Part shown: piece after piece, positions 35,621 to 59,248 of the stretch
Position numbering within the stretch: the stretch's first letter is position 1
How the letters are laid out: every line of letters starts with the position of its first letter
Assembly: GCA_018466975.1 (NCBI GenBank)
Contig: CM031561.1
Location: 4,402,001-4,466,000, forward strand
Direction of reading: 5' to 3'
DNA length: 64,000 bases
Source: Sparassis latifolia
Taxonomy: Eukaryota > Basidiomycota > Agaricomycetes > Polyporales > Sparassidaceae
Translations under genes and position numbers: made by a program
Notes under the pieces: model-generated
Databases searched by the model: none
What the model saw: the letters and a program-made list of their open reading frames with translations, nothing else
What the model was told of the DNA's origin: nothing

Positions 35621-35890
35621 CTACGTACTTCTCCTTCAGTTCAATCTATCTACTCCTTATTACTCTTTGCTTTACCTACGAACCCGCAGTAGTTGACGAG
35701 GTGCCATTACGTACCTGAGCTGTGTCATCAGCGTAGTCAGCTAATCCTACTCGTTTCATCGTTTCACTAAATCGGGTGGGGATGGTGAGCCTTTTGCTTA
35801 CATAAGGATAGGAGGTCTGCCTCCTATCCCAAGAGGGTGGCAGGAAGTCAGTTCACTACCACGACTCCCAAAACCAAAATAAGGGTCCCC

Positions 35891-36278
35891 AGGGTACCCC
35901 TCCCTCCCTCCTTCCTTCCAAAAGCGGAAGGTCTTATCCGTTTTTGGTATGTTAAGCACTCAATAATGATGCACCATAGTGTCTTTCACAAAAAATGTCA
36001 CCGCCCCTCTCATAGGCACGTACATATTTTCAATAAACATAGTGCACTGGAGATTTGGTCTTTGAGATGAGCTCAATGATGGAATTGTGGCCTGTCAGGC
36101 ACTGCTTTGTGGTTGCAGCTCATAGATGAGGCCAGAGGATACTGTGGCCTTTATAGAACATGACATCTAAGTTAGTGGAGCCACGGAAGTATCATTTTGG
36201 ACATCTGGGACTATCTACAGCCATAAATATGCATGTGCACAAACCCAAGTAAGGTCCTCGAGGGTACCCCTCCCTCCC
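35891..36278. repeat. Two direct copies of an 18-19-bp CT-rich motif 369 bp apart
   Basis: AGGGTACCCCTCCCTCCCT occurs at 35891-35909 and, with AGGGTACCCCTCCCTCCCT, again at 36260-36278. The upstream bases are also similar (AAGGGTCCCC and AAGGTCCTCG). The second copy directly precedes the Helitron reading frame, so it may mark a Helitron terminus or a boundary duplication. Confidence 0.6.
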
Positions 36279-36399
36279 TAGGTTGTGGTCTCGGCTTTCT
36301 CTGGTGGGGTACTCTTGTCCTATCCCGGCACACCGGCATTTATGGAGTGTTGGTTTCTGTGTTTCGTTTGCTTTGCTTCTTCCTGCCATATTGATAACG

Positions 36400-39300
36400 A
36401 TGAACTCCTGCTTTTTGGGTATGTTCTTTTGCATCGTTGTGCTTGTCTTCGCTGTCTGTGCAGTTTTCTTGCCCCAATTTGTCGATGTGCTATGTGCATG
36501 TCGGATTCGTGCGAGGTACATGTGTTGTCCTCAGCGTGGTGGTGCCCGGCGAACGTGTTGCTTGTCGGCTACCTTTGTTTGTTCATTTCCCATCGTGTGT
36601 GGTAATGGGGAATGCCTCTCCACCGTCGCCCATGTCGAATATCAAGGGTTGAGCACGCTAGCTCGGTTTCGCCCAGTGTTTGAACGGAGTGCGTCGTGTA
36701 TTCTCGTCGATGTATCTATGACAGTACTCACGTCTGTGTTGCCTTATCGCTGTTTGCTTATGATTGCTAAATTGCATCGCGTTGGTCTGGATCATACACG
36801 TAGACTCGAAGACATCGAGTTGTCGCTATGGGTACATGTCTGCAGTCCATTTTGTATGGCGTTGTACTCTGTTATGGTGTGTGTGAGTGGTGAGTTGTCT
36901 TCCAATGCTTTGCTGAATAATCTGTGTCTTCCATCGCAGTTTGGTATTGATATTTCAACTGTTTCATCTACGCCCATTCATCATCCTCAAGTGCGGTTCC
37001 CCCCTGATCCTCCTTGTGTCGCAGATCTGGCTCGATTTGTATCTGATTGGTGCAAGTATACTTCTTTCACTGCTATAAGCGAGAATCCTTGTGCGGTGTG
37101 TGGTGAGTTGGTGGTTCATAGCATGTTGACTTCTGTTGATCGTAAGGATATCGATTTGGTGCCGTTGATTCGGACAGGATGTGGTGTCGTATGTGAAGAA
37201 CGTGGTGACGCCTCTTCGATTACATTCAATCGGCATGTTCCCATTTTATATTCCATGTACACGCATAATGATATGTTGCAGGTGTGTGATTCATGTCTTG
37301 CTAGTCTTAGGAGACATTGCTTGCCGTCGCGTTCGTTAGCAAATGGATTGTGGCTGGGGGACGTTCCCCCGGTGCTGCGGGATCTTCGGTTTGTAGAAAA
37401 ATTGTTGATTGCGCGTTATCACCATAATTTTTTCGTCGTCCAGGTTGATAAAGGCCAGCGAAAGTTATGCGCTAATGCTGTGGCATTTCCACAGCCTGTT
37501 GTAAGAATGCATAGTGTGCTCCCACCTTTGCGGCAGGATTTTGAAGAGTGTTTGGCTATTTTATTCGTTGGATTATCCATTCCTACAGTGGACGATGTCA
37601 AGCGTACCCCTTTGTTGATGCGGCATGGCATAGTGCTACGTGCGTTGCAATGGCTATGTTTAAATCATAGTGATTATAACGACGTGACAATTTCAGAGAG
37701 CAATTTGGCGTCATATGTTGAAGACGGACCTCCTGTGTGTGTGCTTCACCGTCATATTGATGGCGGAGTTCCTGGGGAAGCTATGTCTTCATTTGAGATG
37801 GAGACTGAGCGAGGAACTGAAAACGGAAGTTGTCCTTTCATTGTTCATGGGTTGTCGGGTGGTGATCTTATAAATATGTCCTATCGCGAGAAGATCACGA
37901 CTGCTGTAAAATATTTTCAGACAGGGGGTAAGGTGTTGGCATATGGCCATGATGCTGCACCTGCTAGTATGTATCATAATCCTCAACTTTATCCCGGTAT
38001 GTTCCCTTGGTTGTTTCCATATGGATTGGGAGGGTTAGAGAATTCGAATATTGAGGTGAAATTAAACCAGCAGCCTCATCTGCGGCATTTATTGCTCTAT
38101 GCCGATCGTTGGTTTCAAGTCGACGAATTTTTTCCCTTTATTGTGTTCAATCAAAATCAGATCCGTGACTGTAGCAGCGGTGGCTATATTTTGACGGAAA
38201 AGCGAAATTTCAAGACTGTGCGAGAAAAGATTATGACTATTGATTCTTTGGCATTACAGCGTTTGATCAACTGCGGTAAAGATGGGGAGTACGTGCAGCC
38301 ACAAGACGATGCAGAATGACAATGTTTCGAATTATTGTCTATTATCGATCATGTAGCGGGCCATGTTCAAGGATCGGCTACGTGTAGAAAATATCAATGC
38401 AACGAAATCAAGTTTCTCATTATCGAGAAGGGTGTTCCCGTATTTTTCATTACTTTTGCCCCAGTCGATTTCAAGCATCCGATATGCCTATATTATTGTG
38501 GTGAGAAGATTGACTTGCTTGATCTGCATCCTTCGTTGGGGGAGGCTGAACATCGTCTTCGAGCAATAGCTCGAAATCTGGTTGCATGCGCTCGGTTTTT
38601 CCACCTAATGGTGAAGTCGTTCATTAAGAACATTTTACGTGCAGATTCAGGCGAGTGCAGTCTATTTGGGCCGACGGAAGCATATTACGCTCCTGTCGAA
38701 TCTCAGGGACGATTGACGCTTCATTTACACATGGTTCTCTGGATTGTAGATTGTCTCAGTCCACAAGAAATTCGGGATAAACTTCTCTCTGATTGCGACT
38801 TTAGACAGCAATTGCTCCTGTGGCTTGAAAGTTGCCATACTGGAGATTATTCCACGGGTACGTCAGCAGAAATTGGACAAAAAATACAGGTGAAGAAAAA
38901 CACATTGGACATAGGTTCTGATGGTGTATCTTTCTGCGCTTTTCAGAATCCCACAACCTGTCTACCATGTCCTCCTCCTTCGATAATGAATGCACAGCAG
39001 GAAAATGATTGGTATCGATCAGTTTGTGAAGCTACGGACGAAATAGTTTATACATCGAATCATCACGATCCCAGACATACTCACGGGTGCTTACGAGGTC
39101 GGGATCAATATTGTCGCGCTAGGTTTCCTCGGGAGACGTTCGAACAGACTGTTGTCGATCAAGATACTGGTGCTATATGATTCAAGAAGACGGAAGAATG
39201 GATTAACACATATAATGTAATATTGTCCTATGTTTTGCGCTGTAATACTGATGTGACGTGTCTACTTTCGGGTACACAAGTTTGAGCGGTGATTGCGTAT

Positions 39301-42300
39301 GTTTCTGATTATGTCACGAAATACCCGCTGACTACGCATTCCATTTTTCAGACTGTGAAGTCTGTTATGGATCGTGTTGATGATGTCAAAACTATGGGAG
39401 ATACCAGTTCTGGTGCTGCCCGAAAGTTGGTTACAAGGATTGTAAATGCTCTTATAGCTCAACAACAGACTGGAGGTCTGTTTCTCTGCGCGAATTTGTT
39501 GGGGCAGCCTGATCATTATACTAACATGCGGTTTAAGACCTTTTTCTGGTATACATTCGTGAAGTATGTCAGTCAATCCCAGGTTGGAACTGCCGGGAAT
39601 GACTTGTTAGGTACTGATCGCGTTGTTGTCGGTAGAGCCGACGATAACATAGTTCCTATCGCACGAATAAATGATTACATTTTTCGGCCCGGAGTTTTTG
39701 AATCATGGACACTCTATGATTATTTGCGTAGGACAATTGTGAAACACCTGCCTCATCCAGTTGCATGTGTACCCGTGCCTGATGATGCCTCATCGACATC
39801 GACTGTCACTTTGGTGCCGGACGAAGGACAAGATGATGGTCAAGAATCGTTAGATACTGACGAAGATAAAGTACAACCTGGTCGGCATACCTTTATGAAT
39901 GGCCATCCATCTCGACTTACACATGCTGTACATCTGTTACAGTATCCGAAAATACTGAACTTTGTCAGAGGTAGTTTACCTCGGCGGGATAAGGGTGATC
40001 TCGATGAGTATAGCAAAACCATGCTTACATTTTTTTCTCCACACGGATGGCAGAATGGAAAGGATATCATGGGTGCTTATTGTTCATGGAAGTCTGCTTT
40101 TGACGCAACTGTATTCGCAGCACATCATGCCCGAATAATGGACCATATGAATGTCTTGTATGAGTGTCTAGATGCACATGACAATTATTCTGCTATTCGT
40201 CGTGCATTGGCGATGGAGGACTGTGGAATTGCTTTGTTTGAAGATGGTCTTGCACATGTACTAGAAGAAGATGTACAGATGCAGCGTTCGACGCAATCTG
40301 CAGACGATCACATATTTGACTTACTTCAGGTTATCGAGGGTGTGGGGTCAAACACGGCAAAGATCCAAATGCATATGTCGGCTATGTCTGCATTACTGGG
40401 CAATATTTTTATGTGACCTCTGGATGAACGGTCTACGAAGTTAGAAGACGATGTTACTCACCTTGCGCATTATCGTACCCCTGCTGATTGGAAGGCTGCT
40501 GTTTGCAATGCCGAAGATGCTGTCATCGCAGTACAGATGCGGCAACGCAGTATGCGTGATGTCGCCCAGAATGAGCCACGTGACATATTATCTGCGGTAT
40601 GTTCTGTTCACATTGGTGATTCAGATGGCATAGTGAAAGTTATGAATGCTTTCGAGCTATCTATATCGACGTCTCTCTTCCCTTCGAGCTGTGCACCTCA
40701 GGATGCCGCATTGCTGTTGCTTACCGGCATTATCGAATATTTCTCCCTTAATGATGAACAACAATGCGCATTCATTCTCGCTGCTCACTCTCTCCATCAT
40801 CATGAACAGGACCCATTGTGGATGTATCTAGGGGGGATGGGAGGTACCGGAAAGTCGCATGTACTACATTCTTTGATTTTTTTTTTGATTGTCCATGTGA
40901 AGGCTTACAGATTTCTCGTGGTAGCACCTACAGGCAGTGCGGCCGCCCTGGTGGGTGGAGAGACTTATCATTCTGTTCTAGGTTTTGGGTGACAATATGA
41001 TGGATCCAATGGTCCTAGTAAGTCATGTAATACACTGTCGAAAATACATGAACGCGTAGTGAAAGTCGATCTGATTTTTTTGGACGAAGTTTTGATGCTA
41101 TCCTGTACAGATCTTTATCATATATGTTGTCAGTTGATGCATGCCTTTTCAGATTTTGTTCGTGCGTTCGCTGGGCACAGTATTATTCTCGCAGGTGACT
41201 TCGCACAATTGCCTCCCGTGGGTGCTAAACTGTGTCTTTACAGCAATAAAGTCAATTCAGGGCTTGTAGCCGATCGAGATGAAGATCAACAAGCAGCAAT
41301 GGGAAAGGCTTTGTGGCATCAGTTTACTACCGTTGTGATTTTGCGTCGCAATATGCGACAGACTGGTATGTCCATTGAAGATCAATTGTTTCGGCGGGCC
41401 TTAGAGAATATGCGGTACAAAGCTTGTACGCAGGAAGATTTTCACCTACTCAACTCTCGAGTTATTGGCCATGGTGGGGATTGTCCATCTCTGTTGGACG
41501 ATCAGTTTCGGTATGTATCTATAATAACTGCATTGAATGCTCACCGGGACACCATTAATTCATATATGTGTTCTCGATTTGCCGCAGATAACCAACGGAC
41601 GTTACATTATTTTTATTCTGTTGATTCATGGCCGGAGAAGGCTGCTACTTCGTCGTCTATACAACAGTCTCAACATCAGAGTGATTGCATACTGGACCCA
41701 CCTCGTATGTCCTCTTCTATTCCGCGGAAATTGCAAGAAGTATTATGGAATCTTCCGCCTTGCTCAAGCAGTCATCTTGCGGGTGTTCTGCCTTTGTGTA
41801 TAGGTATGCCTGTTATGCTAAAGGCTAATGAAGCGACGGAGTTATGTGCAACTAACAGCGCTGAAGCGACAGTTGTGCGATGGGATAGCCACGTCTCCAA
41901 ATTAGGTGAAGAAGTTCTCGATACACTCTTTGTGAAGTTATGTAATCCACCCAGAACCGTTCACATCGAAGACTTACCTACTAATGTCATTCCACTCACA
42001 TGCACGAAAATCACGATTCAGTGTTGTCTGCAAAATGATTCTACTGTTCATATTGACCACGAACAAGTACAGGTTCTCCTCAATTTCGCAATGTCAGATT
42101 TTGGATCTCAAGGACGCACGAGGCGCAATAATCCATGTCATTTAAAACATAATTGGGGGCATCAATCGATATACACTGTACTATCTCGGAGCTCTAGCTT
42201 ACATGGTACCCTTATTGTTGAAGGATACGATCGGACGAAGCTTCATGGTGGTGCATCCGGTGCTCTTCGACGGGAATTTCGTGAGCTCGAGATGCTGGAT

Positions 42301-43446
42301 TATATAACTTCTGCGCAATACAGCAAACAATTGCCATCGTACATTTCAATCACTACTTGTCATTCTACTATCGATGGGTTGCACCAATGGAAGGGTAAAC
42401 GATTTGTTCCTGCACACGTACCTGCCATGTTATCTTGGTCGGATGTCGCTGATGACGAATTAGATCTTCCTCTGGTTCCTCAACCGTTTTATATTGTGTC
42501 GAACAAAACTCAGGCAGACGGCTCTGACCGACGACGATCGAGGCATGCGAACAAACGTAAAACCGATACAAGTACGTTTGTTCCCGCTATTGAACTTCAG
42601 AGTAAACATCGGCATACAACAGCATTAATTCCATCCTCTGTGTCTTCTCCGTCAAGTAATGCGATGCACCAATGTATTCGTATTGGAATTCTATGGGATG
42701 CCGATAATTGGAGCTGTGCGTATGATTCGTTCCTCACCATCCTTTGGAACACATTTGTTGATGCAAGAATTCGTCATCTCCATCTTCCCAACAACATATT
42801 CTTCACAGATATTTGGCATAGCTTTTCTGTTGTATCTGATGGGGAATTGTCACTCGAACATGTGCGGGACCACTTGCGTGACTGTTTGTCTCATTCTAGC
42901 CTGGTACGATTTCCCAGATTTGGGCACGTTCTTACAGCAGTGACCGATATTGCAGAATTTCTGTTGCATTATTCTCAACCCATTGGATCCCAGAGCTCAT
43001 GTTGTACATCTTGCGGATATGTTATACCACCATCCATATCCGACTTTGTCTCTAATACAGTGGTGGTCATTCATCAGCAATTATTGTCTGTGCTCCATGA
43101 TACTCCTCCCATTTCTGTTGCCTCGGTATTGCATGCCCACTGGATGAATAATTCTGATCGTCGATGCAGTAGGTGTGCATCTGTTGTGTCTACTGTGACT
43201 AATTTTGCCTTTCCTCCGTCCATCATCCTCGTGGAAGTACAACCTTCACTCGATGGCACGTTCTTGCACTCGCTGTCCATTGATACTACATTCGCACTTT
43301 TACTCGGTTCTACACGCTACACTTGGCGACTAGTCGGCATTGTTTATTTAGGCGGTAGTCATTTCGTGACATGATATATTACACCTGCCGGCACGGTTTG
43401 GCTGCATGATGGTGCCGCGATGGGCCGTCAATGTTTACGCAGCTGA
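36400..43446 (+). pseudogene. Helitron Rep-helicase transposase with six internal TGA stops
   Basis: One frame runs from 36,283 (first ATG 36,400) to the TGA at 43,444. It is broken only by TGA at 38317, 39178, 39283, 40414, 40990 and 43372. Domains in order: an unassigned N-terminus; a DUF6570-like block with CAVCGEL and LANGLWLGDVPPVLRDL (about 37,080-37,400); and the Helitron-like N-terminal region with LFPYGLGG and HVAGHVQGS. The HUH motif LTLHLHMVLW is at about 38,715-38,745. The tyrosine pair YVSDYVTKY is at 39,298-39,324. The PIF1-type helicase has Walker A GGMGGTGKS (about 40,836) and LIFLDEV (41,074), AGDFAQLPPVG (41,195), and SIYTVLSRSSSLHGTLIVEG. The C-terminal domain resembles a ubiquitin-specific protease. 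The protein cannot be made at full length without readthrough. Confidence 0.88.
42655..43443 (+). other. Ubiquitin-specific-protease-like C-terminal domain of the Helitron protein
   Basis: DNWSCAYDSFLTILWN looks like a Cys box (Cys near 42,715). Two CxxC pairs, CCTSC (about 43,000) and RCSRC (about 43,170), resemble the zinc-binding finger of C19 proteases. GGSHFVT before the TGA at 43,372 and YITPAGTVWLHDG after it resemble a His box followed by the usual aromatic-Asp end. The last stop therefore cuts inside the presumed active-site region. The assignment is by motif pattern only. Confidence 0.5.
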
Positions 43447-44189
43447 CGATGCTGAAAACATAGATTTCACATGTGCAATAAACAAACGAGCAAGTCATCT
43501 GTTGTACATACTTAGCTCCTAACCCTTCTTCTACCTGTACTGTCATTTTGAATGAATGACAATTTGTCCCAATATGTCATACATCTCGATAATTCTCTGA
43601 CATACATTCAATGAAATAATCCGGCAGTATGTCATCCTCCTCCCCGAGATGAGATACGTGAGCAAATAAGCACCGGGACGTTGGTGATCGTAACATGTGA
43701 ATTATGCCCACATGGGAAGTCTTGTTCATGATTGCATTGTCGTCATCGCCTGTTTAACTGGAGCATATCGAGCTTGTATCGTCGCAACCATAGGCATAGT
43801 ATAAATAATAAACACAATGTTGGTTTCACGCACAATTATCTGGATATTATATGGAGCATGTGTCATCGCTCGATGAAATGGTATCAGTCGATTTGTCCCA
43901 CGTCTGCCTCGAATATCAAGCTTGAAGAATATTTCTGTGGCTGAGAACAAATTGGAGATACTGGACACACATTGGTGTACACGTGATTTGTAGATAATGG
44001 ACCCACATTGGTGTACACGTGATTGGTCGCTATGCTGAGGATTCCACAACTGCGATCAAAGTCCTTCCACACCCTATCTATCATTCACGGCTATTCCTAC
44101 ACACTGCGATCTGCTAATGTCTACCGTTCACAAGTCCGCATTCATTCGATGTTGATTCTTTTCAATGTGCTGAATATTGTATCATTAGA
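43447..44189. other. Spacer after the Helitron transposase
   Basis: AT-rich spacer without a gene. It carries a 35/36-bp tandem duplication at 43952-44022. Only short frames are present. Confidence 0.5.
43952..44022. repeat. Two-copy ~36-bp tandem repeat
   Basis: Two adjacent units share CACATTGGTGTACACGTGAT at their ends and differ at a few positions in the first half. Confidence 0.85.
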
Positions 44190-51231: not shown

Positions 51232-51244
51232 GAATACAGGTAAG

Positions 51245-51445
51245 TAGTCTCGGCTCCAGTCGTTCACCCACGGAAGCGACCGACAACTAATATGTCGGAG
51301 ATCGAAAAAACCATTGCAGCTTCCGTGGTAGAACATCTGGTGAACTTCGGTAAAGTGGGTGTAGATAACCTCAATCCCCACATTCCGCCTTCAGAAACAC
51401 CCATTCGACGCCTCAGGAGGCCTATAGTAGATACATAGCTACTTA
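51245..51445 (+). repeat. Short repeat unit, copy 1
   Basis: It starts with AGTCTCGG and contains a frame reading MSEIEKTIAASVVEHLVNFG then KVGVDN. A 10-bp inverted repeat (CCACGGAAGC ... GCTTCCGTGG) brackets the start of this frame. Confidence 0.8.
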
Positions 51446-51684
51446 TATATAATAGAGATTAAATTTCCCGTATGCTTTTCGGGGCTCTCTGGGCCCATCA
51501 TTTCATGCTGTATGCGCTGCATTTCACATTGCTGCTCTCGCGCGGGAGTTTCATAAATTGAGATTTCGGGTCCCAACGGTACACGAGCATACAATATAAG
51601 ATAGAAATAAAGGATTGCATGGATAGAGGAGCAGGAAATGGAAATTGATGATGGGCACAACTACCACGCCCAGGCACCTGCAGA

Positions 51685-51832
51685 GGGTTATCCACACCCG
51701 CTGTACCGAAGTTCACCAGACGTTCTGCTGGGCAGGCTGCAATGGTTTTTTTGATGTCCGATATATTGGCTTTCAGCAGCCTCCGAGGCGGAGCTGAGGA
51801 CTGGCCCAGCATGATCGTCTGGCTTGCGAGAC
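51685..51832 (-). repeat. Short repeat unit, copy 2 (inverted)
   Basis: On the minus strand it reads ISDIKKTIAACPAERLVNFG then TAGVDN, and it starts outside with AGTCTCGCAAG. It is inverted relative to copy 1, about 240 bases away. Confidence 0.8.
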
Positions 51833-52612
51833 TACTGTCCTAGGCACAGTTCTGCAAAGTGTGCATCAATATGCAAAATGCGCATCAATATGCAAAATGT
51901 GAATATCTCGTCCAATTCTCAAAAATACTTTAATGGGTTTGGTTAGTAGTTGTATGGACACTATCTAAACGTGTTTCAACCCTGTGTATGATAATTTGTT
52001 GATGTGGAAACAAATGGGAGAGCGATTGCATGGTTTTGCACCCAAATTTAAGTGCCGGAAATACAGCTGATATGGAGATCCTTCCTGCAGTACTCATCCC
52101 AAAATTTTGCCACCCATAATATAAGCCTTTCTAACATGGAGCTACCTTTAGAGTAACCCCGATTGACGCCATGCGAAGTTGTTCTTGCTCTATGCTATGT
52201 TGCGAGAAAGACATGTTACATCCATCCGCCACAGCATGATGAAATTCAGACTCCGTCGCCCAAAGCAGCTTTGCAAAACTGTGCACACCGCTCTGCATTG
52301 ACCGAGCCATCAAATTTGCCAGGCATGCCGAAGGGTGCTCATCGTGACAGGCTTGTGACGATTTTGCATTACCCTGCGCACTTGCACTCTCGTCACCGGA
52401 AGGTCTCCGAGAACATAAGTTCTGGGAATTTTAACATGCTACTTAGATAACCTTGTAGAGGGGACATTATTGTACATAGACTGCAAGTTTAAAGAGATTT
52501 CATGAAGTTGTCAGGGAGCTATGAGCAGCACACTGAAAGAGTTTGCAAAACTGTGCCTAGGATAGTAACAGGTAAGCAAGAGTTGACTTTTGCGGATGGG
52601 GCGGCGAAAAGT

Positions 52613-52809
52613 AGTCTCAGTTCCAGACGTTCACCCACGGAAGCAACCGAGAATGAATATGTCGGAGATCGAAAAAACCATTGCAGCTTCCGTGGTAGAA
52701 CGTCTGGTGACTTTCGGTACAGTGGGTGTAGATAACCCCCAATCTTCACGTCCCGCCCTCCGAGTTGCCCCTTCGATGCCTTAAGAGGGCTCGAGTAGAC
52801 ATGTAGCCA
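52613..52809 (+). repeat. Short repeat unit, copy 3
   Basis: Very close to copy 1: AGTCTCAG start, MSEIEKTIAASVVERLVTFG then TVGVDN, the same 10-bp inverted repeat, and a similar 3' end (GTAGACATGTAGCCAC). Confidence 0.8.
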
Positions 52810-53033
52810 CAAATAGACACCAGAAATATATTTTGCTGTGATCATTGCAAGGGCTTATCACTCTGTACTGTTCAACAATGCCGTTCACGTGGGAGGGCAA
52901 TATAAATGGCAGTTTTACATCTCAGTGTTATGTAAATACACTAGACAAGATACAGACAGAGGTCAGTGGATGTAGAGTAGCGGGAGGAGGAGAGGGGACT
53001 ACATGATGCCCATCGGGCGCAGGAGAGGCGGAG

Positions 53034-53181
53034 GGTTATCTGCACCCACTGTACCGAAGTTCACCAGATGTTCTGCTGGGCAGGCTGCAATGGTTTTTTC
53101 GATGTCCGATATATTGACTTTCGGCAGCCTCCAAGGCGGAGCCGAGGAACGGCACAGCACGATCATCTGGCTTGCGAGACT
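53034..53181 (-). repeat. Short repeat unit, copy 4 (inverted)
   Basis: The minus strand reads ISDIEKTIAACPAEHLVNFG then TVGADN. It is closest to copy 2 and forms an inverted pair with copy 3 about 220 bases away. Confidence 0.8.
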
Positions 53182-53190
53182 AGGCAAAAA

Positions 53191-54700
53191 TGGTCTCGTA
53201 CCCAGACGGTTGTCAAATTGCACCCTACCACCGCGGGACTCTTGCTATAGTGGTAGGGTACCTAGGACCTAGCGGAGTTGGACCTAGCGGAGTTTGAAAT
53301 ACCTACCATCTTCGGAAGGTGGGTGCTTTATATGGTGCACCTCTGATATAAGCAGACTGGTGCATCTTGGCAAGAATTCTACTCTACTCAATTTATTTCT
53401 GCCTCAGTGTACTTGCATCCTGTAAAATATAATTCTGGGTGAGCTTACACTGATGGTATGCACCAGAGAAAGCTTTGGGAGTAGACAAGGTGATGCAACA
53501 CTTCACCATGCTCTGTATCTCATAACACCCAAAATTCAGCTGCAGCCTGATTGCTTGACTATGGCACTTATCTATCAGCTGTATATCATATATAATGCAG
53601 TGTAAGAACTGTGTGTCTACTAAAGGGATATGCTGAGGCTGAGGTGCAGTATGGATGAGCATACAATGGTGTGAAGTTGTCTCTTTATTGCTGATGATGC
53701 AGCACTGGCATGAACAGTACATATTCCAGGCCTCACCCACAGGATAAGAAGAAAATTTTGATTACTGTGTCTATAGTATGTGTCTATGTATAGAAAAATT
53801 CTGCTCAGCAGTATGAGCTATGCAGAGTCTGATGTCTGATGCAAGTTCCTGAGAACTGCAGTCAACAACCTTTGAATAGATCCTGTCTGTCTCCAGTTAG
53901 ATTGATGCAAAATGTCTGTGTATTCAAGCTGAGGGCTTGGGCAGTCATATCAAATAAGAGGTTAAGCAAAACTCTGAATGCCTGATGCTACAGAGATGTC
54001 TTCTTCTCCTCTCTCGAATTAATTTAATTAATTTAAATTAATTTCTTCGGACCCTACCACTATAGCTAGAGTCCCACCACCGCTGACAACATGTCTGGGT
54101 CATTTTGATAGAGGCCTCCTACATTACAGTTAGCGCCCATTAAGCGCTGGATAAGCGACAGACCGTGGACCAGGTCTCTTCCGGAATAGGCAGCTGCTGT
54201 GACGCTCTAATATCTTCCTCTGTCGAAGATTGAGTTGCTGCGAGCTCATTGGCTCCGAAATAAGTGTGAACAGCAGGGAGTTGTGTTAGAGAAGTCAATA
54301 TAAATATTACAGTAAGAAATGAATCAGCTTGAGTGCATCAGTTACCAGATTTCTGGATATTTTCACTCAAGCTGGCTGACTGTGCCTGTTCCAAGGTCAG
54401 AGTGAGTTGGAAGTCATCTATAAATGTTTTACAAGGTTTCCACTATCCCAAAAAGTCCATGACAAGATAACCACTGTACACAGAACGTTGTCGTTGGGCA
54501 GAAAGTGCAAAACTCGTGCAGGAGTCCGCGGAGTGAGCGCTACAAAATAGGCAAGTCCGTAATTAAAGAAGCCGGTAAGCGAGGCTTCTCGGGCGGCTAA
54601 TGGGCGCTAACTGTAATGTAGGAGGCCTCTATCAAAATGCCCCAGACGTGTTGTCAGCGGTGGTAGGGTGCGATTTGACAACCGTCTGGGTACGAGACCA
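53191..54700. mobile_element. Non-autonomous terminal-inverted-repeat element (outer, ~660 bp plus insertion)
   Basis: The left end TGGTCTCGTACCCAGACGGT matches the right end at 54700 read in reverse. The match runs about 100 bp with only a few differences, once the inner insertion is removed. Flanking octamers GGCAAAAA (53183-53190) and GGCGAAAA (54701-54708) look like an 8-bp target duplication with one change. No transposase frame is present. An 8-bp duplication suggests a hAT-like mobiliser, by inference. Confidence 0.8.
53235..54075. mobile_element. Inner 841-bp inverted-repeat element inserted in the outer element
   Basis: The left 25 bases (GGGACTCTTGCTATAGTGGT onward) and right 25 bases (ending AGCTAGAGTCCC) are inverted copies with one mismatch. 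The perfect 8-bp duplication ACCACCGC is at 53227-53234 and 54076-54083. Removing one copy rejoins the left terminal repeat of the outer element. The interior is AT-rich with no gene. Confidence 0.9.
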
Positions 54701-54708
54701 GGCGAAAA

Positions 54709-55084
54709 GTGGGTGTAGGCCTGGAAAGCCCGAAAACTGGTGTGACACGCCGCCGTCAGGCGGCGGAAAGCCCGGTGACAATGTGACACTGGCCAAATAC
54801 CGGTGGCGATGGGGGCCGTGTTACGCGTGACCGCCGGAGTGGTCGTAATGATACAGTACTCTTTGAACTAGAGGGAGGGAGGAGACTCCGACTGAGCCCG
54901 AGTCAGCGCGCAGAATTTCTTAAACACTTGGAGAATAGCAAGTTGGTGCAGGACAATTCTGACAATACAACGATACTGAAATAGCACGGCGACAGATCCC
55001 TAGTATCTAGACAACGAATGCGCGTGACAACAAGAAAGTAATACAAACACATCCTCAAGCAACGCAGTCCTTGATATGTTTTCT
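54709..55084. other. Spacer before CSN5 3' end
   Basis: GC-rich part with a small hairpin (CCGCCG TCAGG CGGCGG, about 54750-54767), then the presumed 3' UTR of CSN5. No gene seen. Confidence 0.5.
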
Positions 55085-56705
55085 CTAACCAATGGCCATC
55101 GAAGTGTCGACAACCTCCCCCACCTCCACGCGGGCGATGTCCTGTGGCCGCATCGAGAAGATCACATCTTTCAACACTTGCGCGATCAGGCCATGCTGTG
55201 CTTCGGTTGCAATTTTCCCGCTGCACAATTCTCAGCATACGCTTGAATTGGAGGAAAGTAGAAAGCGCACCTATCCTTGACGCTTTTCAGCAACTGGTTC
55301 GCGTCTTCTCTCTTCCTTTCTTCCTTCTACTCCGCCCATAAGATCAGTAAGTCTAAAAGAGTATCGGACCAGCGACATCACCGCACCTTCGCCACTTTGT
55401 CGTCTTTCAGTGCCGGAGGAGGCGCACGTGTGCCCGACACCGAGCTCTGCGCCTTCGACAGCTTCTGGTGCAGGTCGATAAGCTGCGCCGCTGCATACGC
55501 GCGATTCTATCCCATCATGAATCCTCGCCATTGCACTCGAGCCGCTAAAAGAACTCACCGAAATCAGCGCACTCTGGCTGACGGTATTCACCCAGTACTT
55601 GTTCCATAGGAGGCCCAGAAGCTCATTGTCGAGACTGCTCTTGAACACCTGCACCTCGAGCGGGTAGTACTGCCCTGCGTGTACACCGAAGTCCTCAATC
55701 TTCGAGAGCGGAATCGACTGGTATTCGGATGACTGAGCGTCGGATGGGACGTGCGTCTCTGGGTATGTACGGAATGCACCGATGTCAACCTTCCCCGCGG
55801 AGACCGTGCGGTTAGGGTCGATCTGCATCACAGAGGATTCAGTGGGGGTGGATGGAAATGAATGTAAAAGATCGCGCACGACTACAGCTACGAATGGATC
55901 TTGGTGCTTCTGGTTCGTCATCTGCGTGTTGACATCGATCCCGGACAGCCAGCAGCCGTAACCCGGGTGCGAGTGGTACCATCCTACCGCATTCTCCAAC
56001 CTCCCAACCTGCAGTCGGGATAGATACGAGATGTAATGACAGAAAAGAACATGCATGACGCACCCGCTCGCTGCCCTCGACATACTGCACCATGTACTCA
56101 TACGCTTCATTCGCCGCGTTCACGCGCGTCTCCGTGCCCTGCACCGGGAGTGCGAAGGAGTCAACGATCACCAACGCGTTGCCGACGACTTTGCCCTGCA
56201 TCATGCCCATGATCTCGTGTGGCACGCCCGAGCGCGCGTGGATCACCATCTTGATGAGCGCAACGGCAGATATCTTGCATACTTTGAAATAGTGTGGACT
56301 GAAAAAGTGTCAGTGATCTGAGTTCCACAGATCGAGAAGAGGCTCTGGGAAGGCAAAGCGACGGCTGCAGGCTGCAGAGATGCGATGTCTGTCTTGCAGG
56401 GGCGAAATTCCACGGAGGGCTACTGGATAATGACAAAGACTCATTATCCTATTCTCCTATCCATATTTCAACTGCTCCTTGGAACCACACCCACGGAAGA
56501 CGACTTAAACACCCTAGCAGACCACACAGCCGCCCTCACCAGCGTAAATTGTGGGCTGCGTAGGTACTGACTCTTGTGCCCATGGCGAGTCACGGAGGAG
56601 CTGTCTGTTCGCTTCGGGGTCAAATTTGAAGATTTCATCCTGCGGGGATACATCTCGAATGTCGTTCACCAGAGAGAATGTCTTCAGGGCTGTGCTCGAC
56701 GACAT
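55085..56705 (-). CDS. CSN5: COP9 signalosome subunit 5 (deneddylase)
   Basis: Catalytic JAMM/MPN+ metalloprotease that removes NEDD8 from cullins. The start at 56705 gives [20 protein letters not shown], then [18 protein letters not shown] long intron (56299-56571, 273 nt) splices GA|T to [18 protein letters not shown], followed by [17 protein letters not shown] with the conserved Glu. The zinc motif is [20 protein letters not shown] (His-x-His-Pro-x7-Ser-x2-Asp). Next come the CSN5-type insertion and [27 protein letters not shown], then [12 protein letters not shown]. The C-terminal helix is [20 protein letters not shown]. The stop is at 55085. All catalytic residues are present. The long first intron is unusual for this window. 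Confidence 0.92.
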
Positions 56706-56977
56706 TGCGAGAAAGTCGAGATAGAGTTCGCAGTACTTGGCCACTGTGGCCGTGTGCACACTAGGGACGGTGACTAGGCCATAGGACAATCTTATCTTAT
56801 CTACTTTCCGACCGGATGACTCGGAGAATACATGGCGGAAGCTCTTCAATTGAAATCGGCTACTAGAGTAGGCTCTAGTACAGTAGTAGGCGGCTAGGCC
56901 AGTGTTTTCACACCCCACCTCGCAGCTACCGCCACTCAACTTTTGATAAGCTTTCGTGAAAGATACCATAATAAAGA

Positions 56978-57280
56978 TCAACCATGATTGCATACATCCG
57001 CTCGGAGGAGCAAACCGTTCTGAATGTAATTCATCTTGCTATTCCCCAGACGCGGATAACCGTCTTGTATCTGGTTCGATTGGCAAAGAGAATTCCACTG
57101 GTGATTAAGTGAGTGTGTCCGCCCGAGAACACTGCGGCCATGACGGAGTGCTAACGACGTCCTGGTGTGCAACGGGAAGACGTGGATCGCCGTAAAAGGG
57201 ATGTAAAATTCGCCGTCTACATTCTCGCCAGTGACAGAACAGCGTCGGTTCCTGCGGCGAACCCGTTCGACGAAATTCAT
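56978..57280 (-). pseudogene. HNH-nuclease-like remnant
   Basis: The frame has RRRNRRCSVTGENVDG, then AIHVFPL and MNYIQNGLLLRADV. These match the Cys, His and Asn blocks of the HNH_2-type proteins common in agaricomycetes. The expected final His after LLRxD is not where the family has it (DVCNHG, then stop). The upstream exon could not be joined. I regard it as a decayed gene. Confidence 0.45.
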
Positions 57281-57922
57281 ATCCTGTCACTGCAAGTAGG
57301 AGCCGCTCAGGAACAAGATGACGTACCCCAGTTGTCTTGGTCAGGTCGGAAGATAGGATACGAGGACGGTGTCGTTCCGGAGTACGTCCCACCTTCACTG
57401 GTTGTCTATCTAAGAGGAATTCATAAGTCACACGACAAACTAAACGCAGGCAGAATACCTGGAGACAGAACAACATAATCTCCCGTTTCCACAGCATGTG
57501 AGCTGTGCCAATTTAACACAGTTTGACCATCATATCTCCCTTTTGAGTCTGCTGGATAAATACGACATCGCACGGCGATACGGAGTACGATACTCATCCA
57601 GCAGTGAAAGGCGACGATGGAAACAGGAGCTCGTGCATACTGGAAAAATTGTTCAGGGATTCAGGTGCTCAGAAGCATAGAAGTGGGCGGCAGAGTAATG
57701 ATAATAGAGCCTGCGACGATCCCTCTGTCCTTGGACAGTGACCACGTTGCGTTCAAGAGCTGAATGCATGGCTAAATTCGTAGTTACGCGATTACGAGCC
57801 TGCAGCTTGGACACATGAACGACGTCTGCCGGTATATAAGTCATAATGATCGTTACCCTTTCTTTCTTCCTGAAGACTCACCGCTTTGGCACAAACTTGT
57901 CCAGCCTGTGGGTGGTACAATG
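57281..57922. other. Interval upstream of the HNH-like remnant
   Basis: Frames of about 100-130 codons on both strands between 57,105 and 57,500 may include a lost upstream exon of the HNH-like gene. Nothing else is recognised. Confidence 0.35.
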
Positions 57923-57924
57923 TA

Positions 57925-58272
57925 CAGCGTGTTGCATAATTGCGTGAAACCCTGGGATTTCTCTGGCTTATTTGGCCGGGGCAAACAAACCCATATCCGG
58001 TAGGGGTGGATGCCAACAAATCACGGCTTCCGACACTCTGCCCTGCATTCGTCATTCGTGCCACTTGGTGGCTTGCAAAGTTTTCCAATGCACTGGATAC
58101 GTGTTCCAAAGTGCTTCTATATGCTTTCCTTCTCTTAAATGGGGTCCTGTAAACCAAGATGTAAGTGGTAGAATTTTGGGTGTACAACCCCGACCTTCCC
58201 CTTATGGCTTTGTTTGCGCAAGACAAATAGCGCACAAAAATCCCAAGTTTCACGCAATTATGCAACACGCTG
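57925..58272. mobile_element. 348-bp mariner-like MITE
   Basis: Perfect 26-bp terminal inverted repeats, beginning CAGCGTGTTGCATAATTGCG and ending with its complement, extend to ~36 bp with a small gap. TA dinucleotides flank both ends (57923-57924 and 58273-58274). There is no transposase. Confidence 0.88.
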
Positions 58273-58339
58273 TAAACCCGGTGAGAACCCGGCCTGGCAC
58301 GATCACGTGCCGGCACACGTTCGCGTTCTTACTCTTAGC

Positions 58340-59248
58340 CACTGGAGGCAAAAGTGGATGTTCTGCCTTGGAACAGTGTCTGAACATCCAAGGAACAGAT
58401 TACGTTTTTGGACATGTCACATGTTCTGAACATGGTAAGGAACATCTAATATGTCTCGCACAATGTTCCATTGGAGAGCATGCTGGAAACATGTTGCATA
58501 TACCATTCTGGAACATATAATATGTCTCACACAATGTCTCATTGGAGAATGTCCTGCAGACTTGCTGCATGTTTCATTCTGGAACATTTATCATTTTGCT
58601 ACTATATTCTGGGCTTGTCTCTTGGTGCAATATGCTCTGTATAATAAGGATTTCTCATGGCCAAACACATTACATTTCTGGCTGCTGTTAATCTTCAGAA
58701 CATTGTGAGAAGATGTTAAGTGCTCCTACTCCAAACATACAAGATGTCCTGGGCACCAAGAACATTTGCAGTACATGTAAAATTTTAGTATAATTTTAGT
58801 ATGTATCATACATGTACTGCAGATGTTCGTGGTGCCCAGGACATCTTGTATGTTTGGAGTAGGAGCACTTAACATCTTCTCACAATGTTCTGAAGATTAA
58901 CAGCAGCCAGAAATGTAATGTGTTTGGCCATGAGAAATCCTTATTATACAGAGCATATTGCACCAAGAGACAAGCCCAGAATATAGTAGCAAAATGATAA
59001 ATGTTCCAGAATGAAACATGCAGCAAGTCTGCAGGACATTCTCCAATGAGACATTGTGTGAGACATATTATATGTTCCAGAATGGTATATGCAACATGTT
59101 TCCAGCATGCTCTCCAATGGAACATTGTGCGAGACATATTAGATGTTCCTTACCATGTTCAGAACATGTGACATGTCCAAAAACGTAATCTGTTCCTTGG
59201 ATGTTCAGACACTGTTCCAAGGCAGAACATCCACTTTTGCCCCCAGTG
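58340..59248. mobile_element. 909-bp near-perfect palindrome with CACTG ends (CACTA-like foldback element)
   Basis: Two 440-bp arms (58340-58779 and 58809-59248) are inverted copies separated by 29 bases, and almost identical. The few differences I found are near the outer ends and near the loop. Outer ends read CACTGG...CCAGTG, and AGC flanks both sides (58337-58339, 59249-59251) like a 3-bp target duplication. Each arm contains a diverged ~71-bp direct duplication and many GGAACA/TGTTCC hexamers. CACT ends, 3-bp duplication and subterminal repeats are features of CACTA/EnSpm elements. No transposase is present. Confidence 0.85.

What the first reader, a model, noticed from the sequence alone, without database searches (positions are those of the whole stretch)
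36283..43446. A 7.2-kb Helitron frame interrupted only by TGA, each at a likely former CGA
The frame spans about 2,387 codons and contains six internal stops (38317, 39178, 39283, 40414, 40990, 43372). All are TGA; no TAA, no TAG and no frameshift occurs. Random decay would give all three stops plus indels. Conserved Helitron context makes arginine a likely original residue at several sites (before FKKTEEW, before AVIAYV, before YITPAG). CGA to TGA is a C-to-T change at CpG, so this looks like a young copy silenced by cytosine methylation and deamination on the sense strand. The later F-box copies carry TAA and TAG as well, so they may have decayed differently.
Basis: partly seen in the sequence, partly recalled or inferred. 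Interest (0 to 1): 0.75.

Follow-up and report, generated by a model that had tools for sequence, protein, structure and literature searches.

The report
Helitron gene broken by CpG mutation
A mobile-element gene in a bracket-fungus-like genome is broken by six identical stop codons that most likely arose where CpG cytosines turned into thymine, the commonest way transposon genes seem to decay in this genome, so it is a clear but ordinary example.

Summary
The six in-frame stops are real and all TGA. Two corrections: the frame begins inside a 488-bp repeat insert (likely ATG 36400), and a net 2-nt deletion near 43438 shifts it into the TGA at 43444, where both sister copies read on. The CpG reading is supported. 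At 34 columns where at least 80% of homologues keep Arg, this copy changed 10, all 10 to CpG-transition products, five of each strand type. At 4 of 6 stops a sister carries a CGN Arg codon; 38317 and 40414 are only compatible with CGA. Young repeats of the same genome show CpG transitions about 14-fold over other C/G transitions. Stops in TE domains are TGA in 112 of 171, so six of six is unremarkable here (chance 0.08-0.11). Weak points: the plain three-way count for this copy is 1.44-fold, p = 0.06, and CpG is not depleted. Both strands are hit. Methylation was not measured; two DNMT1-like loci exist. 'Young' is untestable: sisters are 67-69% identical. CpG-preferring TE mutation is in print for Ganoderma (PMC4457147, passages). 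A new case of a known kind.

The parts
36400..43522 (+). Helitron protein gene, broken: probable ATG to probable native TAA (the tail after about 43438 lies in another frame)
   Evidence: tblastn to sisters from ATG 36400; tail and TAA 43520-43522 from alignment with both sisters
37315..37710 (+). DUF6570 (PF20209)
   Evidence: E 8.7e-37
38083..38739 (+). Helitron_like_N (PF14214), crossed by the TGA at 38317
   Evidence: whole-genome search, E 5.2e-22, 1 TGA inside
40747..41382 (+). PIF1-like helicase (PF05970), two pieces on either side of the TGA at 40990
   Evidence: E 2.1e-8 and 1.6e-7
38317..38319 (+). TGA 1
   Evidence: sisters AAA and AGA; homologues K 83, R 12 of 120
39178..39180 (+). 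TGA 2
   Evidence: one sister CGT, the other TAT; homologues N 58, R 24 of 120
39283..39285 (+). TGA 3
   Evidence: both sisters CGN; homologues K 94, R 25 of 120
40414..40416 (+). TGA 4
   Evidence: Gln in both sisters; variable column in homologues
40990..40992 (+). TGA 5
   Evidence: one sister CGA, the other TGG; column mostly gapped or variable, R 11, W 0
43372..43374 (+). TGA 6
   Evidence: one sister CGA, the other TGT; homologues R 117 of 162
43438..43446 (+). net 2-nt deletion (place uncertain by a few bases) and the out-of-frame TGA 43444-43446 that it leads into
   Evidence: alignment with both sisters
35830..36317 (.). 488-bp repeat insert in the 5' part of the element; not part of the gene
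   Evidence: copies on C14 and C5 at 95-96%; on C5:3424176-3424406 the two flanking stretches lie side by side
35762..35829 (+). 5' stretch shared with both sisters and two further loci, with a short inverted repeat

Best explanation
A dead copy of a large Helitron gene (DUF6570, Helitron_like_N, PIF1) in a Polyporales-like fungus. Its lineage kept a working frame for most of its history; this copy was then disabled mainly by C:G to T:A transitions at CpG, on both strands. Sense-strand hits at CGA can only give TGA; antisense hits give Gln or His and leave the frame open, which is why only TGA is seen. Shown: CpG-type excess at conserved Arg; a CGN codon in a sister at 4 of 6 stops; strong CpG bias in young repeats of this genome; TGA bias of TE stops genome-wide. 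Inferred: that the CpGs were methylated, and that ordinary deamination of 5-methylcytosine did it rather than an active mutator.
For: Conserved Arg columns at >=80%: 10 of 34 changed, 10 of 10 to W/C/H/Q, against 34 of 479 other conserved columns changed (p 2e-4), and 96 CpG-type of 307 changes in the homologue pool at the same columns (p 1.3e-5); at >=60%, 45 columns, 14 changed, 12 CpG-type, 2 other; at >=90%, 29 columns, 8 changed, 8 CpG-type. Sister B: 18 of 34 changed, all CpG-type, and 15 TGA of 16 stops. CGA to TGA 6 of 34 against 0 of 160 non-CpG routes, p 2e-5; with only the four supported sites counted, 4 of 32 against 2 of 160, p 0.008. Young repeats: L001/L003 48 of 62 differences are CpG transitions, 13.9-fold; 488-bp repeat 13 of 66 against 9 of 624, 13.7-fold. 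TE stops 112 TGA of 171. DNMT1-like loci.
Against: Plain three-way nucleotide count for this copy only 1.44-fold, p 0.06; codon positions 1+2 alone 1.59-fold, p 0.17. CpG O/E of the frame 0.97-0.98, not depleted, and close to the flanks (0.92-1.16 in most 4-kb bins, 0.78 in one), though TpG and CpA are raised. Two stop sites lack a CGN sister codon, and Arg is not the commonest homologue residue at 38317, 39178, 39283. Sister A is mixed: 4 TGA, 2 TAA, 2 TAG (one TAA, at 36367, lies before the ATG), and its Arg excess is borderline (6 of 34, five CpG-type, p 0.055). One frameshift is not a CpG lesion. No methylation data.
Confidence: 0.8

Rival explanations
1. An active, repeat-triggered and CpG-directed mutation process (RIP-like) hit the element within few sexual cycles, rather than slow deamination of methylated CpG.
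For: About 14-fold CpG bias in young repeats; the Ganoderma sinense authors call a similar CpG-preferring pattern RIP (PMC4457147, passages).
Against: The L001/L003 pair is one-sided, 42 of 48 CpG changes in L003, whereas classical RIP mutates both partners (recalled); the window copy has no partner above about 70% over the gene; its load is modest; a bias of this size needs no mutator (inference).
Confidence: 0.15
2. CpG decay dominates, but one or two of the six stops came by another route (for example from TGG, AGA or a Gln codon in two steps).
For: 38317 sisters AAA/AGA, 40414 Gln in both, 40990 TGG in one sister; stops at TGG codons do occur in sisters (A 39010 and 40819; B 38740 and 41314).
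Against: Trp in 0 homologues at 40990 and 1 at 40414; no TAG in this copy, which TGG and CAG would also give; Gln is itself the antisense product of CGA.
Confidence: 0.3
3. Ordinary decay without CpG bias; six TGA by luck.
For: Only six stops; one indel is present; weak nucleotide count for this copy.
Against: P 7e-4 to 9e-4 under the model, about 0.01 by the other frames; 10 of 10 conserved-Arg changes CpG-type.
Confidence: 0.03
4. TGA is read through or recoded and the protein is made.
For: Only TGA occurs, and the frame is otherwise open over 7 kb.
Against: 0 of 12 sister codons are TGA at these sites while sisters have TGA at other places; conserved Arg lost elsewhere and a frameshift before the tail.
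Confidence: 0.01

Closest known systems
CpG-preferring C-to-T mutation of TEs with CpG methylation in Ganoderma sinense (Polyporales), PMC4457147 (passages read)
   Same: CpG preference, TE targets, DNMT1-type genes; the authors note that CpG to TpG can introduce TGA while CpA to TpA gives TAG and TAA
   Different: There methylation was measured and the process is called RIP; here it is one gene read in detail, with both-strand Arg loss, and no methylation data
CpG-signature TE decay in Microbotryum and rusts, tied to Masc2-like Dnmt1, PMC4352252 (passages read)
   Same: CpG signature in basidiomycete TEs; methyl-cytosine deamination proposed
   Different: Microbotryum prefers TpCpG; the six stops here are preceded by A, A, T, G, G, A
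Classical RIP of Neurospora (recalled; also described in PMC4352252, passages)
   Same: C:G to T:A transitions in repeats
   Different: CpA target, which gives TAA/TAG; not the pattern here
Polyporales Helitron proteins such as that of Hermanssonia centrifuga (P0122)
   Same: DUF6570 plus Helitron_like_N, 54% identity over the 721-residue stretch searched
   Different: The window gene is broken; P0122 is a partial record without the helicase part

Membership tests
Helitron (autonomous) | Rep-type Helitron_like_N domain | tested here: met
Helitron (autonomous) | PIF1-like helicase in the same protein | tested here: met
   the pieces are parted by a TGA
Helitron (autonomous) | terminal sequences (5' TC, 3' hairpin and CTRR) and insertion between A and T (recalled) | not tested
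   A shared 5' stretch with a short inverted repeat was seen; no 3' end was fixed
5-methylcytosine deamination | excess of CpG transitions | tested here: met
   conserved Arg columns 10 of 10; stops; but plain count 1.44-fold, p 0.06
5-methylcytosine deamination | both strands affected | tested here: met
   5 sense-type and 5 antisense-type
5-methylcytosine deamination | CpG methylation at the locus | not testable with these tools
   no methylation data; methylase domains at four loci, two with DNMT1-RFD nearby
RIP (classical) | CpA as main target | tested here: not met
   488-bp repeat: CpA 2 of 207, CpG 13 of 66; no TAA/TAG in the frame
RIP (classical) | acts on duplicated DNA, both copies mutated | tested here: inconclusive
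   L001/L003 one-sided, 42 against 6; the window gene has no close partner
RIP (classical) | RID-type methyltransferase | not tested
   methylase domain hits were not sorted into RID and other classes

The most novel reading that the evidence does not exclude
This genome has an active CpG-directed mutator that strikes single transposon copies in bursts, so that TGA-only frames mark the first stage of transposon death and TAA/TAG come later.
Probability: 0.12. Interest if true: 0.5.

Novelty: new member of a known kind. Interest (0 to 1): 0.27.

Why it matters
It is a worked case of how CpG mutation alone leaves a readable stop signature: sense hits at CGA can only give TGA, antisense hits give Gln or His. 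A frame broken only by TGA is therefore a cheap first sign of CpG-directed decay in an unannotated genome, to be checked at conserved Arg, and the share of TGA among stops might rank transposon copies by stage of decay (not tested here).

Tried and rejected
Rejected: introns as the cause of the stops (the frame runs collinear with sisters and homologues around the stops; homologues are gapped or variable at 40414 and 40990); recoded TGA; a TpCpG preference (the six stops are preceded by A, A, T, G, G, A). Weak or uninformative: the three-way nucleotide count for this copy; the five-copy Helitron clade L006, L007, L008, L036, L037, whose CpGs are mostly gone (O/E 0.33-0.36) and whose CpG ratio is 2.8; Pfam on the downstream ORF; methylase typing beyond the domain hits. 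Paper searches: (listings); passages read of PMC4352252, PMC12543289 (no occurrence of 'CpG' or 'Basidiomycota' in its main text) and PMC4457147; PMC3318451 (Horns 2012) is not held and is known to me only from a reference list and recall.

Full report
What is there. The frame 36283-43446 holds 2,388 codons and stops, with TGA at the six positions given and at 43444 and no TAA or TAG. Pfam finds DUF6570, Helitron_like_N and PIF1. The two best homologues of the N-terminal half are 56% and 54% identical over the 721 residues searched; the named one is from Hermanssonia centrifuga (best 120 of 556 listed). For the C-terminal piece named hits include Trametes, Ganoderma and Grifola (best 120 of 683 listed). 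The genome has 41.4 Mb in 22 contigs.

Corrections to the frame. 35830-36317 is a 488-bp repeat with copies at 95-96% on C14 and C5; at C5:3424176-3424406 the stretches that flank it in the window lie side by side. So the frame start at 36283 is in foreign DNA; homology to a sister begins at about ATG 36400. At the other end the window copy has a net 2-nt gap near 43438 against both sisters, which stay open there; its conserved tail continues in another frame to TAA 43520-43522. So there is one frameshift, and 43444 is not the native stop.

Sister copies. Two relatives of the whole gene turned up in this genome: A (C10:687.7-694.7 kb) and B (C8:2258-2271.5 kb, in pieces, with a Copia-type match inside at C8:2265034). 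The three are 67-69% identical. At the six stops 0 of 12 sister codons are TGA. A CGN codon is present in at least one sister at 39178, 39283, 40990 and 43372; at 38317 the sisters have AAA and AGA; at 40414 Gln in both. Gln is what an antisense CpG hit makes of CGA, but Gln as the older state is not excluded. In homologues Arg leads only at 43372 (117 of 162); at 38317, 39178 and 39283 the leaders are Lys, Asn and Lys with Arg in 12, 24 and 25 of 120, and 40414 and 40990 are variable or gapped. A has 8 stops in the compared codons (4 TGA, 2 TAA, 2 TAG; one TAA lies before the ATG) and B has 16 (15 TGA, 1 TAA); at 36550 both sisters have TGA where the window copy has CGA.

Is it CpG? First, stops: without a CpG effect P(6 of 6 TGA) is 7e-4 to 9e-4. 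CGA to TGA is 6 of 34 against 0 of 160 for CAA, CAG and TGG routes (p 2e-5), or 4 of 32 against 2 of 160 if only the four supported sites count (p 0.008). Second, independent of stops, conserved Arg: at 34 columns with Arg in at least 80% of homologues this copy changed 10, all to Trp, Cys, His or Gln, five sense-type and five antisense-type; other conserved columns changed 34 of 479 (p 2e-4). Changes in the homologue pool at the same columns are CpG-type in 96 of 307 (p 1.3e-5). B changed 18, all CpG-type; A changed 6, five CpG-type (p 0.055 against its other columns). At a 60% threshold the window copy has 45 columns, 14 changed, 12 CpG-type and 2 other; at 90%, 29 columns, 8 changed, 8 CpG-type. 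The homologues are database proteins whose integrity was not checked, and some changes are shared with a sister. Third, the plain three-way count of CpG over non-CpG transitions is 1.44 for this copy (p 0.06), 1.98 for A (p 8e-4) and 2.42 for B (p 4e-9). The frame's CpG O/E of 0.97 is not depleted, though TpG (1.27) and CpA (1.31) are raised. The load on this copy is thus modest, and long functional branches dilute the count.

Genome background. Helitron loci L001 and L003 (about 98% identical) differ at 62 bases, 48 of them CpG transitions, 13.9-fold per site; 42 of the 48 are in L003. The 488-bp repeat shows 13 of 66 against 9 of 624, 13.7-fold. An older clade of five Helitron copies, mostly stripped of CpG, shows 2.8-fold. 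In-frame stops inside TE domains are TGA in 19 of 36 (PF14214, 21 of 43 matches hold stops), 17 of 25 (PF20209, 14 of 43), 35 of 52 (PF07727, 39 of 117) and 41 of 58 (PF00078, 45 of the listed matches; 151 found, 150 of 241 candidates scored, a few not listed): together 112 of 171 (counted). The first two families overlap in loci and include the window gene and its sisters, and introns were not modelled. At these rates six of six TGA has a chance of 0.08-0.11, so this copy is typical of the genome.

Mechanism. Cytosine methylase domains lie at four places, and two of them (C4, C7) have a DNMT1-RFD domain 2-3 kb upstream on the same strand, as expected of DNMT1-like genes. In Ganoderma sinense 98.7% of 5mC is at CpG, TE mutations prefer CpG, and the authors point out that CpG to TpG makes TGA (PMC4457147, passages). 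PMC4352252 ties a CpG signature in basidiomycetes to Masc2-like Dnmt1 (passages). I read the window gene as one long under constraint (position 3 changes far exceed position 2) that then decayed chiefly by CpG transition on both strands. That the CpGs were methylated, and the tempo, are inferred. The one-sided L001/L003 pair does not look like classical RIP, but age differences could also make it one-sided.

Verdict. It is a clean new example of a known process. The novel reading, a CpG-directed mutator acting in bursts with TGA-only frames as its first stage, is not excluded.

Noticed in passing
   Followed up: partly
35830-36317: 488-bp repeat inserted in the 5' part of the element, itself showing about 14-fold CpG bias among three copies.
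   Followed up: partly
L001 and L003: Helitron pair about 98% identical whose 62 differences are 48 CpG transitions, 42 of them in L003: a better test case for CpG decay than the window gene.
   Followed up: partly
35762-35829: 5' stretch shared by both sisters and loci L023 and L044, with an inverted repeat that is imperfect in the window copy.
   Followed up: no
42640-43371: C-terminal region kept in many homologues with no Pfam family over its cut-off.
   Followed up: no
51242-59149: Cluster of direct and inverted repeats downstream, for example 51242-51834 against 52609-53182 at 73%.
   Followed up: no
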